Positions 26,153 to 32,168 of a stretch of 64,000 bases of DNA are shown here, piece by piece. Source of the DNA: Spartobacteria bacterium (GTDB lineage: Bacteria > Verrucomicrobiota > Verrucomicrobiia > Chthoniobacterales > UBA10450). The stretch lies in contig PLCN01000002.1 in the NCBI GenBank assembly GCA_003134785.1, positions 310,219 through 374,218 on the forward strand, in the 5' to 3' direction. Under the pieces are notes generated by a model. The model was given only the letters and a program-made list of their open reading frames with translations, was not told the origin of the DNA and searched no databases. The translations under genes and the position numbers were made by a program. Position 1 is the first letter of the stretch; every line of letters starts with the position of its first letter.

Positions 26153-27124
26153 CTATCGCCAAAGGTCGATGAAAGCCGGCAAGTTCGGCAATAGATCGCC
26201 GGCCGCGTGCACGGCAATCGCAGCAAACAGATTTCGTGTTCGCGCCCAAATCACCCCGAACAGAATGCCGCTCGGTGCGACCACAACCACGGAATAAGCC
26301 AGCGCCGCTAGGGCCGAAGGATTAGCGCCGAGGCCTTCCACTTCGCCCCCATGACGGAAAATGAACCCGGGCGCGTGCGCCAGTCCAAAGGTTAGCGACA
26401 TCAGCGCAACGCCCGTTATCTCCGAGCGAAAAAATGCACTCAACCGTGATTGAACCAATGCACGAAAGAAAAACTCTTCCACCAATCCAGCCTCAATGGC
26501 CAGCCACACGAAACACACGGGTAAAGCTGGCAACAACTCGTGCGCTGGAAATTTCCCAGCGCGCACCGGCGCCACGGCCCCACCGAGGAAATACTGAAAG
26601 ACGATGAGAGCGCCGCTCAGCACCAACACAACCAGCCCGTGGCCACGGCCAAGTGCACGCAGGGCCGACAGACTGACCCCGTAGTTGGCCCAGCGATAAC
26701 CGAACAAAAAGCGAAAAATCAACCATGGCGCTACCACGAACACGGCCAGTTTCTTCGCCAGATTGACAAAGAAATGAATTCGCGGCGAGACGCTCCACCG
26801 AGCAGGAAGAAGCCCATCGATCCATTGCGGGCCGCCGATGAGATAGATCGAGAGAGCGATCACGATCGCGACCAGTACCAGCATTTCGCTCCTGCTCGAT
26901 CGGGTCGGTATTGCGAGCGGGACGGCGCGGCGCGTTGCTATCCATGCGAGCAGAGGAAACACCAAACCGACGATGACGAGCTCAACCAAGGCATCGGCGA
27001 AATTGAAATCCTTGTTCTGCGACAAAATCGCCAGCCCGGCCAAATAGAGCGCCGCAAATAGAGCGACGCCCGGATTAAAGATAAGGAGTCGAACCGTCTT
27101 CATACTCTTTCCATTTGGATGCAT
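26153..27124 (-). CDS. CPBP-family intramembrane metalloprotease
   Basis: IEAGLVEEFFFRALVQSRLSAFFRSEITGVALMSLTFGLAHAPGF and FGVIWARTRNLFAAIAVHAAGDLLPN (EExxxR and HxxxN-type motifs). Confidence 0.88.
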   Translation of the reverse strand: MHPNGKSMKTVRLLIFNPGVALFAALYLAGLAILSQNKDFNFADALVELVIVGLVFPLLAWIATRRAVPLAIPTRSSRSEMLVLVAIVIALSIYLIGGPQWIDGLLPARWSVSPRIHFFVNLAKKLAVFVVAPWLIFRFLFGYRWANYGVSLSALRALGRGHGLVVLVLSGALIVFQYFLGGAVAPVRAGKFPAHELLPALPVCFVWLAIEAGLVEEFFFRALVQSRLSAFFRSEITGVALMSLTFGLAHAPGFIFRHGGEVEGLGANPSALAALAYSVVVVAPSGILFGVIWARTRNLFAAIAVHAAGDLLPNLPAFIDLWR

Positions 27125-27449
27125 TGCGGAGCACCTTTGGATTCAAGAACTTCGCGTCAACGCAGAGACGCCGGAATGTGTGCGCGATTTGTCAGCACGC
27201 TCGCTCCCATCGATGCGATCGGTGGACCGCAAAGCGAAGTCGCGTGCGCTATGTCTTTGCGCCCAGTCGGCTGTCGAAACTCTGAAGACCTAACGGATAG
27301 AGGTGAGCCACAGCCGTGGAAGCCGGGCGTGTGAAAGTACGAGTGTAAACGATTCAACGACGGCCAACGTAACAGAACGGCTCAAGGCTGTTGGCTCCAC
27401 TGAAGTGTTAAACCGCGCGGCGATCCGTTGGATGTTCGCCTCGCACTGC

Positions 27450-27863
27450 TCACTCGAACCAGATCTCAATTTCGTAGCCATCCGGATCGGCGATGTAAGC
27501 GTAGGGGAGGCCGGGAGCGAACTCGCCACGACGGAGCAAGCGCCCTCCCGCGCGTTCGACCTCGGCGATGGCACGGTCGATGTCGTCGGGGTCCACGAGC
27601 CGAAAGCCGAAATGTGCGACGCCGCCACTGAGACCGGCGGTGGCGGGGTCCTCTGCGAAGGTGACGATGTCGTGCCTACCCGACGCCTGAGTGTGGACGA
27701 GTCCATCTCCGCGCCCGTACTCGCGCAGACCAAAGACCTGCTCGTAGAACCGCAGCGCGCGTCCCAGATCCCGGACGGCGAGATTGATGTGCGTAAGGCC
27801 GTAGGTCTGAACCATTGTTACCTCGAAATTCTTTCGCGGTCTAACGAGATCAAGCTCAGCCAC
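27450..27863 (-). CDS. VOC family protein
   Basis: THINLAVRDLGRALRFYEQVFGLREYGRGDGLVHTQASGRHDIVTFAEDP...ERAGGRLLRRGEFAPGLPYAYIADPDGYEIEIWFE. Confidence 0.93.
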   Translation of the reverse strand: MAELDLVRPRKNFEVTMVQTYGLTHINLAVRDLGRALRFYEQVFGLREYGRGDGLVHTQASGRHDIVTFAEDPATAGLSGGVAHFGFRLVDPDDIDRAIAEVERAGGRLLRRGEFAPGLPYAYIADPDGYEIEIWFE

Positions 27864-27970
27864 CGCTGACGAAACCGAGCTTTGCTGTGGACTTTAATGT
27901 TGAAACTGTCATGTGTTAATTTTTCAAAGGGGGCAGCGGTTGGTTGGAGCGCTTAGATGACATGAGGGAG

Positions 27971-28005
27971 TTGTCGGGTGCGGGTTTGGGACCTACACCC
28001 GACAA
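27971..28005. ncRNA. Stem-loop upstream of the IS110-type transposase; candidate part of a bridge RNA
   Basis: ttgtcgggtg (27971-27980) pairs exactly with cacccgacaa (27996-28005), ending just before ATG at 28007; RNA identity is inferred. Confidence 0.35.
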
Positions 28006-28006
28006 T

Positions 28007-28972
28007 ATGAATAATACCATAAAGGTAGAGTCGTCCTCACTCGAGGAAACCCGCGGAGAGTTTAATCCCCGCGCCGTTGCGATCAAGCTTGGAATCGATG
28101 TGCACCAGGAGTTTTACGTGGTGGTTTGCCAGGAGGGAGGAGGCAACCCGAAGCCGGCGCAGCGCTTCAAGAAAGAAGCGTTCCTGAGCTGGGCGGCCAA
28201 GTTGAAGCAGAAGAGCGGGGCGGAGATCCACGCGGTCTACGAGGCGTGCGGGTTTGGGTTCGGCTTGCAGCCGCAACTGACGGCGCTGGGGATTGCGTGT
28301 TACGTGGTCTGTCCGCAGAAGTTGGATGAACGCAACCAGCGGGTGAAGACCGATGGGCGCGATGCCAAGGCGCTGTGCCTGAAATTGGATCGGCTGGTGG
28401 AAGGCAACCGCGAGGCATTGGCGCTGGTGCGGGTGCCGACTGAGGAAGAAGAACAACTGTGGGCCATCCACCGGCAGCGCGAGCAACTGGTCAGAGCGCG
28501 CAAACAGTTGGAAGCGCAGGGGCGCAGTCTGATGGTGAATCACGGGCTCGAGCCGGTGAAGAGCTGGTGGAAGCGGCGGACCTTTGCCGCGCTCTGCGTG
28601 CCGGAGTGGATGAAGCAGTTGTTGAGTAACTCGCAGCCGATTCTGCTGGCGCTGGAGGAAAAGATCCGCGCGCTCACCGTGCAACTCCAGGGGGCAGCCG
28701 CTCCAGGGCAACCGCGCGGACTTGGGGCCATGACCAGTGTGGTGATCGATCGGGAGATCGGAAGCTGGAACCGGTTTAACAATCGCCGCCAGGTGGGCAG
28801 CTACTTCGGTTTATGTCCCGGAGAGTACTCCAGCGGTCAGACCCGGGTCCAAAGCTGTGTGACCAAACACGGGAACCCGCGCTTGAGAGCGGCGCTGGTG
28901 GAACTGGCCGTGGATCTGTGGCGCCTCCGCACCGGCCGGCTCAACCCAGGGCAACTCGGGCTGACGGATTAA
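28007..28972 (+). mobile_element. IS110/IS116-type (DEDD) transposase
   Basis: AIKLGIDVHQEFYVVVCQ N-terminal domain; KTDGRDAKALCLKLDR; C-terminal IS116/IS110/IS902 domain ...SVVIDREIGSWNRFNNRRQVGSYFGLCPGEYSSGQTRVQSCVTKHGNPRLRAALVELAVDL. Confidence 0.9.
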
Positions 28973-29331
28973 AACAAATGAGTTTGAGGGGAACAGAAAA
29001 AAAGGACCTTGCCTAACGAAACCTTAAGCTAAACCTAATATCCACTTTGGGATGTTGGCGTGTGCCCGTTACCTAACCTGATCGGCCTCACTGCCAGTTC
29101 GACGCTTTAGATTGGGCCACGCCTACGTTCCTCTTCCATCGATCGCATTGATCATATGGTCCGGCTACTGCCGTGACGGATAGGAGTAAGAGCCGCTGGA
29201 AACACAAAACCCAACGAGCCACAGGAAGAGGAGGCGTCTCCAAGATTAACTCAAACCACTTACCAACCCAAAACCAATGAACTAGAACGAACCCCATACC
29301 CTGCATCCACGCTTGACTTCCTATATAGGGG

Positions 29332-30657
29332 TTAGGTCTTTTTCATTCGAGCCAGGGCTTCCGCGAACAGACTCTGCACGTCCTCCAATCGGGTTGAAGG
29401 GTCGTTGTTGTAATCCATGAGTCGGTGATGATAATTGCGTCCCTCAGATCGTTCGTCCACGATTTGCCGCACCAACTCAAGCGCCGGGCGACGGTGGTGG
29501 AAACCGCCAGTCACCTCCGTGCTCGCTCGCTGGACCGCACAATAAATACTCCACTTTGTATCGGTCGGGGCGCACTTGCGAGTGTCGCTGCGGTTCCAAG
29601 CTGCTTCTGTAGAAAGGATGGCTGCGGCGCGCTGCACGATCTCGCGGTCCAAGTCATTCGGCGGAACGGGATGCGAAGTATCGATCTGGAAGCTCACCAC
29701 CCTAGCCCTAGCCGTGAATCCGGAGATTGGGAACCATCCGTATTCAGATCTCAGTACCCCCGATCCTTTGTCATATATCTCGAGTTCGAGAGGCCAGTTT
29801 GGAGAACCTGATTCCGTCATATCGCCTGCCCAGACTGTTGTCGGATTCCCGCTCTTGCGCCACACTCCGGTTGTGACCGCTTTGGCCGGCGCGATTGTCA
29901 GCTTCCGGTTTTCTCCGAAGAGAGATCCACACGAACCTTCCCATGATTTTTCGCCGGGATGGAACTCGCAAGCGGCAAGCGACTGAGGCGTACCGCCCGA
30001 GTCCGGCCGCGCCTGGTCTGCCCCGTCGATCAACAAGAATTCCTGCTGGAGGATGGCGTCACTAAGACCGGGATTCAGATTTTGGACGTAGGAACCTCTG
30101 GTGATGAGTTTGCGTCCAGAAGCCAGAATCCTGGGGCCGGGAACACGGCCGGCGTTGATCCCGTCGCGCAGTTCGGTGTCCCCATCAATGCCGGAGTGGC
30201 CGAGATTGCGCACCGTCGTGAAACCACTCTCCAAGTCTTCGCGAGCTGATTGCGCGCCCACTAGCACGCGTTTGCGTGGCGACTCGATGACGGCGAGCAA
30301 TATTCCCGGAGCGAACAGTCCGTTAAAATGGCGCTGCTGTTCCAGTTCCGGCGGCACAATGATGTCGAGAAATAAGTGGGTGTGACTGTCGATCAGTCCG
30401 GGCAGCAGCGTTGCGCTGCCCAGGTCGATTGTCTTGGCGCCTGCCGGCGGCTGTATCTGCGCGAGCGGACCGACTTCCTTGATCTTGCCGTTTTCAATCA
30501 GCACGCTGGCGGGCGAGAGCACATTTCCAGTGCGGGGATCAAGGAGGCGGCCAGCTTTAACTAGAGTTACAGGAGCGGACGGTTGGCCCGTGACGTGCCC
30601 GGCGGTAAGGATTGAGAACGCTAGTGCCAACAATAGGAAGGTTCGTATTTGATTCAT
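29332..30657 (-). CDS. Chimeric secreted protein: N-terminal amidohydrolase half fused to an unrelated C-terminal domain
   Basis: N-term VTLVKAGRLLDPRTGNVLSPASVLIENGKIKEVGP...TLLPGLIDSHTHLFLD; C-term FHPGEKSWEGSCGSLFGENRKLTIAPAKAVTTGVWRKSG...VQRASTEVTGGFHHRRPALELVRQIVDERSEGRNYHHRLMDYNNDPSTRLEDVQSLFAEAL. Confidence 0.75.
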   Translation of the reverse strand: MNQIRTFLLLALAFSILTAGHVTGQPSAPVTLVKAGRLLDPRTGNVLSPASVLIENGKIKEVGPLAQIQPPAGAKTIDLGSATLLPGLIDSHTHLFLDIIVPPELEQQRHFNGLFAPGILLAVIESPRKRVLVGAQSAREDLESGFTTVRNLGHSGIDGDTELRDGINAGRVPGPRILASGRKLITRGSYVQNLNPGLSDAILQQEFLLIDGADQARPDSGGTPQSLAACEFHPGEKSWEGSCGSLFGENRKLTIAPAKAVTTGVWRKSGNPTTVWAGDMTESGSPNWPLELEIYDKGSGVLRSEYGWFPISGFTARARVVSFQIDTSHPVPPNDLDREIVQRAAAILSTEAAWNRSDTRKCAPTDTKWSIYCAVQRASTEVTGGFHHRRPALELVRQIVDERSEGRNYHHRLMDYNNDPSTRLEDVQSLFAEALARMKKT

Positions 30658-30833: not shown

Positions 30834-32168
30834 TCAACGCGCCGCATTTAGCTGCTTGAGTACATCCTGCACGCCGCTACGAATCTCGGCCCGCCGCTGC
30901 TCGGTATCGGACCACGACGACAGAGGCGCTTTGTGAGAATCAATCATGGCCAGTGCCTTTTCGGCGTACTGACGTGCCAGGTCTTTCTGTCCATCTTTCA
31001 AATAGGCATCGGCCAGGTTATAGTGCGCGTCCGCAGAGTCCGGATAAGCGAGAAGGTTGAGCTTGAAGATCTCGATCGCTGCGTTTATTTGCATCTTGGC
31101 CTCGCGCAACTGGCCAGCCTTCCTCTTCGACTCGCCTTCGCGCACATGGTCTTCGCCTATGATGTCGACGTTAACTTCCGGCAACAACTGCGCCTGGGGA
31201 TCTCTCCGCCGGGCTTCCATCAGTCGCTGCTTGATGCGCGCGACTCCTTCGGACGTCCAGAGTTGATTGAGGATTGCCGCAGATGCCAAGGCGTCCGCTG
31301 GTGCGTGCCCCGGCGTTTTAATCAGCGTGGTTATAAGCCAATCCACGATGATGCCGGACAGCTCCGGATGAACTTTGAACATGTCGGTTCCGTGGCCGCC
31401 CTTGGCGGAAACTTTGCTGGCATCGCTGGTTTCATACCATATCCAGGGCGCGTCTTGTGCAGCCGAATAGTGCACGAACTTCTTTCCCGGGCTGGAGGAG
31501 GTGATGTAGAGCCATTCCATCGCCTCGACCGTGGGAGGGTATTCGTCGTCGTCGGCCACGACGAACAGTCCGGGCAGTTGTGACGCCTCCCGCAGGAATT
31601 GCAGACCGTCTTGGAGGGTCTCTCCGGAAAGCAATACCAGCGATTTCACTTCAGCTGAGTGTCGACGCGCTACTTCGACGGAAGGAAGGACGCCGAACCA
31701 CCCGGCTCCTCCCACGCCGATGACATCGCGCTTCACGCCCGGCTGCGAAACCAAGTATTGAAACGCTGTGTCAACGTCGCTAGGCCACATCGTTTGTGCC
31801 TTTGCCTTCTCCGCGTCCGTCAGCTTCGTATAAGGCCCGCCGCTCTCGCCAAACCCGCGCATATCGAGTGTAAGCGTATTGATTCCAGCCGCAGCCAGTT
31901 GTCCGGCCAGATCATCCCAGGACTTACGCGTCCGGTTGATCTGATGCAGCAGCAGCACACCGGGACCTGGTTTGGCCGCTGCAAAGTAGCTTCCCTTCAG
32001 GATCGTCCCATCCGGAGCCTTTAGTTCGACTAGACGTCCAGCCGGTAGTTGCTGCGCCTGTGGCGCCGGAGTAGCGCTCGGCGTCGCGGTGCTCTTTGTT
32101 TCTTGTCCCAGGGCGCCGGCGGTGAAGATGGTTAGTGCCAACAATAGGAAGGTTCGTATTTGATTCAT
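30834..32168 (-). CDS. Secreted alpha/beta hydrolase with C-terminal TPR-like region
   Basis: GRLVELKAPDGTILKGSYFAAAKPGPGVLLLHQINRTRKSWDDLAGQLAAAGINTLTLDMRGFGESGG; TPR-like IFKLNLLAYPDSADAHYNLADAYLKDGQKDLARQYAEKALAM. Confidence 0.85.
   Translation of the reverse strand: MNQIRTFLLLALTIFTAGALGQETKSTATPSATPAPQAQQLPAGRLVELKAPDGTILKGSYFAAAKPGPGVLLLHQINRTRKSWDDLAGQLAAAGINTLTLDMRGFGESGGPYTKLTDAEKAKAQTMWPSDVDTAFQYLVSQPGVKRDVIGVGGAGWFGVLPSVEVARRHSAEVKSLVLLSGETLQDGLQFLREASQLPGLFVVADDDEYPPTVEAMEWLYITSSSPGKKFVHYSAAQDAPWIWYETSDASKVSAKGGHGTDMFKVHPELSGIIVDWLITTLIKTPGHAPADALASAAILNQLWTSEGVARIKQRLMEARRRDPQAQLLPEVNVDIIGEDHVREGESKRKAGQLREAKMQINAAIEIFKLNLLAYPDSADAHYNLADAYLKDGQKDLARQYAEKALAMIDSHKAPLSSWSDTEQRRAEIRSGVQDVLKQLNAAR

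What the first reader, a model, noticed from the sequence alone, without database searches (positions are those of the whole stretch)
27900..28980. IS110-type element with a hairpin directly 5' of the transposase: bridge-RNA candidate
Seen: the transposase has the IS110 N-terminal and IS116/IS902 C-terminal patterns. The ORF-track start (27944) would place the perfect 10-bp stem ttgtcgggtg...cacccgacaa (27971-28005) inside coding sequence; starting at ATG 28007 leaves it in the 5' non-coding end. Established: IS110-family elements express structured bridge RNAs from non-coding ends to pair with target and donor DNA. Inference: this hairpin is one stem of such an RNA.
Basis: partly seen in the sequence, partly recalled or inferred. 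Interest (0 to 1): 0.6.

Follow-up and report, generated by a model that had tools for sequence, protein, structure and literature searches.

The report
attC-targeting IS1111 element with leader hairpin
The hairpin is real and conserved but is not the guide RNA: it abuts the transposase start codon, probably as an expression control, while the target-guiding RNA of this jumping gene lies at its other end and fits the integron site the element sits in.

Summary
Window 27955-29329 is an IS1111-type (IS110-family) element with both ends, in a soil verrucomicrobial (Chthoniobacterales/Spartobacteria-like) MAG. It sits in an integron attC site. Aligned homologues show that the long non-coding end is 3' (28973-29329), with subterminal inverted repeats: the IS1111 layout, in which the guide RNA is 3'. 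There a structured RNA (29044-29240) carries an internal loop whose 5' strand (ACCTAACC) is complementary to the element's own right flank (GGTTAGGT). Guide and flank track each other across 28 copies (p=0.003). Two distant relatives at other targets carry 9- and 11-nt guides matching their own flanks. The hairpin is a separate leader structure: its stem ends exactly at the ATG in nine diverse copies, keeps pairing while its sequence changes, and does not track the flanks. Most likely it controls transposase expression, as shown for the ISPpu9 leader. The window transposase has lost 43 residues in frame and is probably inactive. New member of a known kind.

The parts
27955..29329 (+). whole IS1111-type element (1375 bp; intact sister copy on contig C3 is 1523 bp)
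   Evidence: ends fixed by aligning 23 left and 17 right ends and by uninterrupted attC sites GCGNNN-GGTTAG in the same genome
27962..27971 (+). left subterminal inverted repeat ATGAGGGAGT after a 7-bp extension AGATGAC (27955-27961)
   Evidence: other copies ATGTAGGGAGT
29316..29326 (+). right subterminal inverted repeat ACTTCCTATAT before a 3-bp extension AGG (29327-29329)
28007..28972 (+). transposase gene (321 aa; DEDD and serine residues kept)
28902..28910 (+). junction of an in-frame 129-nt (43-aa) deletion between short ACTGGC-type repeats, relative to the C3 copy
28973..29329 (+). 3' non-coding end
29044..29240 (+). predicted guide RNA (bridge/seekRNA-like) region
29057..29062 (+). outer stem 5' arm GGCGTG of the target-binding loop (pairs 29118-29123)
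29118..29123 (+). outer stem 3' arm CACGCC
29069..29078 (+). 5' guide strand TTACCTAACC; ACCTAACC is complementary to own right flank GGTTAGGT
29101..29112 (+). 3' strand of the loop GACGCTTTAGAT, resembling left junction GCGCTT|AGAT (not statistically supported)
29313..29318 (+). TTGACT, nearly invariant -35-like hexamer at the right end, possible half of a circle-junction promoter (inference)
27839..27954 (.). left part of the interrupted attC site
   Evidence: E 2e-16
29330..29338 (.). right part of the interrupted attC site, GGTTAGGTC
27288..27413 (.). second, intact attC site
   Evidence: E 1e-12
27450..27863 (-). cassette gene between the two attC sites, judged glyoxalase/VOC-like from its sequence only

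Best explanation
An IS1111-type element that inserts in integron attC sites (cassette recombination sites). Layout: left end, 52-nt leader with hairpin, transposase, then a guide RNA in the 3' end. Inferred action: the RNA binds the transposase. Its internal loop reads the target: ACCTAACC pairs with the top strand of the right half (GGTTAGGT), and the other loop strand probably reads the left half (GCGNNT). The circular element inserts between GCGNNT and GGTTAG without target duplication. The leader hairpin is a separate cis element in the transposase mRNA, abutting the start codon; it most likely limits or times translation. This copy is probably a decayed one because of the 43-aa deletion. 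Shown in silico: ends, target, RNA fold, guide-flank match, hairpin conservation. Inferred: transcription, protein binding, mechanism, hairpin function.
For: Ends and 3' non-coding end. Target is attC: uninterrupted sites GCGNNN-GGTTAG; a covariance model built without the window sites finds them; 28 attC-like sites and an intI gene in the genome. RNA: conserved outer stem with 8 distinct arm pairs, 109/114 cells paired, 0/5000 shuffles. Guide: positions 7-8 of the flank paired with own guide 43/56 against 34.7 expected, p=0.003. Retargeted relatives: L025 (35% identical, other attC position, 9-nt guide; 7/2000 shuffles) and L023 (40%, other target, 11-nt guide; 1/2000 shuffles) at the same place in the RNA. 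Hairpin: 170/184 core pairs kept, 0/5000 shuffles; 0 nt between stem and ATG in nine diverse copies.
Against: No RNA or protein data. The single window RNA is not more stable than shuffles (z -1.2). Guide-flank statistics ignore relatedness, and several copies mismatch. The left-half guide shows no covariation. Double-change counts did not exceed shuffles for either stem. The -10 of a junction promoter is weak by eye. The hairpin is absent from IS4321 and not evident in L025, so it is not needed for the mechanism in general.
Confidence: 0.8

Rival explanations
1. The 5' hairpin is a stem of the bridge RNA, as the first reader proposed (IS110 layout, RNA in the left end).
For: Hairpin is in a non-coding end, stable and conserved.
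Against: Only 52 nt between left end and ATG; long non-coding end and sTIRs are of IS1111 type; guide-like loop matching the target lies in the 3' end; hairpin sequence does not follow the flanks.
Confidence: 0.05
2. On the hairpin alone: it is a 5' leader that controls translation or stability of the transposase mRNA: occluding initiation, stabilising the 5' end, or looping out the spacer so that a GGAG in the left inverted repeat reaches the ATG.
For: Stem ends exactly at ATG in nine diverse copies; purine-rich GGAG-like stretch just before the stem in several; the structured 5'-UTR of ISPpu9, another IS110-family member, limits translation (PMC8450116).
Against: No expression data; anti-SD pairing upstream of the stem is weak in some copies; the ISPpu9 leader is 244 nt and differently built.
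Confidence: 0.6
3. On the hairpin alone: it acts as DNA, part of the left end recognised by the transposase next to the inverted repeat.
For: It directly adjoins the left sTIR.
Against: Spacing is fixed to the ATG as well as to the end, the sequence changes while pairing is kept, and no counterpart was seen at the right end.
Confidence: 0.15
4. The element is an immobile remnant and the guide-flank match is inherited coincidence (all attC sites carry GTTAG).
For: 43-aa deletion in the window copy; several decayed copies in the genome.
Against: Many copies in different attC sites, and relatives at other targets with matching guides.
Confidence: 0.1

Closest known systems
IS1111-attC group (ISKpn4, ISPst6, ISPa25; Tetu & Holmes 2008, Post & Hall 2009 as cited in PMC11187229)
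   Same: IS1111 layout, insertion at one end of attC, target-matching RNA in the 3' non-coding end, top-strand complement 5' of the bottom-strand match
   Different: verrucomicrobial lineage with its own attC type; transposases only distantly related to plasmid IS110-family ones (about 24-35%; ISKpn4/ISPst6 sequences not compared); leader hairpin against the ATG
ISEc11 / ISXne4 (IS1111, seekRNA; PMC11187229)
   Same: 3' seekRNA; natural retargeting by changed guide segments
   Different: targets are not attC
IS621 (IS110, bridge RNA; PMC11208160, PDB 8wt6)
   Same: transposase family, internal-loop target guides
   Different: RNA in the left end and short STIRs; sequence match weak and C-terminal only (E 0.001)
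ISPpu9 (PMC8450116)
   Same: structured transposase leader thought to restrain translation
   Different: long 5'-UTR with antisense sRNA; REP target

Membership tests
IS110 family (broad) | DEDD/RuvC N-terminal plus Transposase_20 C-terminal domain with serine | tested here: met
   (D, E, D, D and EYSS present in the window protein)
IS1111 type | subterminal inverted repeats with 7-bp left and 3-bp right extensions | tested here: met
   repeat 10-11 bp, imperfect in the window copy
IS1111 type | long non-coding region downstream of the transposase gene | tested here: met
   357 nt 3' against 52 nt 5'
IS1111 type | no target-site duplication | tested here: met
   left and right flanks join to an uninterrupted attC
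IS1111 type | transposase groups with IS1111 rather than IS110 proteins in a tree | not tested
   no tree built; 28% identity to ISEc45, 25% to IS4321
IS1111-attC group | specific insertion in attC | tested here: met
   some copies (L058, L099, L061) have left flanks not recognisable as attC
seekRNA / bridge RNA | target-complementary guides on two strands of a loop, top-strand complement first | tested here: inconclusive
   right-half (top-strand) guide supported; left-half guide present by eye but without significant covariation
seekRNA / bridge RNA | RNA expressed and bound by the transposase | not testable with these tools
   needs RNA-seq of the RNP
   left end 52 nt, no guide found there

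The most novel reading that the evidence does not exclude
A verrucomicrobial lineage of RNA-guided attC-parasites that switch between positions inside attC, and to other targets, by changing the guide loop, and that share a hairpin locked to the transposase start codon: a compact leader control not described for IS1111 elements.
Probability: 0.4. Interest if true: 0.5.

Novelty: new member of a known kind. Interest (0 to 1): 0.38.

Why it matters
It extends RNA-guided attC targeting to chromosomal integrons of uncultured soil Verrucomicrobia, with relatives whose guides and targets changed together, a natural test set for guide-target rules. It also separates a conserved leader hairpin from the guide RNA, which matters to anyone locating bridge RNAs by looking for hairpins near transposase genes.

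Tried and rejected
Hairpin as bridge-RNA stem: rejected (end layout, no tracking of flanks). Hairpin as coding sequence from 27944: rejected. Rfam: nothing in 26500-30500. Left-flank versus 3' loop strand covariation: no offset significant. Double-change counts for both stems do not exceed shuffles; only the fraction paired (and, for the hairpin, extra pair types) does. A wider hunt for retargeted copies in the order: G169 uses the same GGTTAG target and guide; G177 carries the L025-like guide but sits at a site with one mismatch; several others were cut by contig ends. Structure prediction was not used: it would not decide between the readings.

Full report
Observation. The ORF at 27944-28972 is an IS110-family transposase (PF01548, PF02371). 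The perfect 10-bp stem is at 27971-28005. Such stems are not rare in 64 kb (11 against 0-7 in shuffles), but the leader 27955-28040 folds well beyond shuffles (z -4.8).

Ends. Homologues from the same genome and its order were aligned. Left ends agree from AGATGACATG, window 27955. Right ends agree to ...CTTGAC..CCTACATAGG, window 29329, always followed by GTTA one base on. The element is therefore 27955-29329, with 52 nt before ATG 28007 and 357 nt after the stop. Subterminal inverted repeats (27962-27971 / 29316-29326) have 7-bp and 3-bp extensions, as stated for IS1111 (PMC11187229). IS1111 elements have the RNA in the right end, IS110 elements in the left (PMC11187229; PMC11208160).

Target. 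Left flank 27839-27954 plus right flank 29330-29338 form an attC: TCTAACGAGA...CAGCGGTTGGTTGGAGCGCTT|GGTTAGGTC. Uninterrupted sites of about 123 bp (GCGNNN-GGTTAG) occur in arrays in this genome and relatives. A model from 26 such sites, none from the window, finds the window site (E 2e-16) and a second at 27288-27413 (E 1e-12), and 28 sites genome-wide. An integron integrase gene, with one in-frame TGA, is on contig C10. In the array on C22 the cassette genes run on the opposite strand to the attC strand printed here, so the window cassette (VOC-like gene, minus strand) is in normal orientation.

Guide RNA. 19 copies of 29044-29240 share an outer stem (GGCGTG/CACGCC in the window, GAGGCG/CGCCTC, GGGCGC/GCGCCC, GAGGTG/CACCTC elsewhere; 109/114 cells paired, 0 of 5000 shuffles reach it) and an internal loop. 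The 5' strand of the loop, TTACCTAACC, is complementary to the right flank over 8 nt. Over 28 copies, flank positions 7-8 pair with the copy's own guide in 43/56 cells against 34.7 in shuffles (p 0.003; relatedness not removed); the window's unusual T at position 8 meets an unusual A. L025 (35% identical) sits elsewhere in attC (CGGTT|GGCTCCAGCG) and has the guide CGCTGGAGC; L023 (40%) sits at an unrelated site and has an 11-nt guide, both at the same place in the RNA. The order of strands fits IS1111 seekRNAs. The left-half strand gave no significant covariation.

The hairpin. In 23 distinct left ends the stem changes sequence but keeps pairing: TTGTCGGGTG/CACCCGACAA, AGTGCGGG/CCCGCACT, GCGCGGG/CCCGCGC, AGCGGGTGAG/CTCACCCGCT; 170/184 core cells paired, 0/5000 shuffles. 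In nine diverse copies the stem ends with no base between it and the ATG. Reading frames through it differ and are often closed. It is absent from the IS4321 left end. It has no target or donor match that follows the flanks. A leader controlling expression is the best reading, by analogy with the structured ISPpu9 leader (PMC8450116); this is inference.

State of the copy. Against the C3 sister (90% identical protein) the window gene lost 129 nt in frame between short ACTGGC-type repeats, removing 43 residues of the C-terminal domain. Catalytic residues remain, but activity is doubtful; the C3 copy looks intact.

Noticed in passing
L060 (G005 C24), L110 (G007 C25), L098 (C9): Short derivatives of 416-578 bp keep both ends but have lost most of the transposase gene; L060 and L110 still hold the guide loop, L098 does not. 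Possible trans-mobilised mini-elements.
   Followed up: partly
L086 (own genome C10:4543-5484) and L100 (C22:2609-2978): Integron integrase gene with one in-frame TGA on C10, and a fragment beside a three-cassette attC array on C22.
   Followed up: partly
window 29332-30657 and 30834-32168, minus strand: Two neighbouring ORFs start with the same MNQIRTFLLLAL peptide; the first looks like an amidohydrolase start fused to unrelated sequence, with its stop codon formed by the attC.
   Followed up: no
L066, L120 (G011): The guide-RNA apical stem carries a longer hairpin, about 60 nt more (GTCCAGCTACTTG...CAAGTAGCTGGAC).
   Followed up: no
G031 contigs C18, C25, C62, C79, C83, C91, C108: Seven near-identical right ends, most at contig edges, suggest a multicopy element collapsed in assembly.
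   Followed up: no
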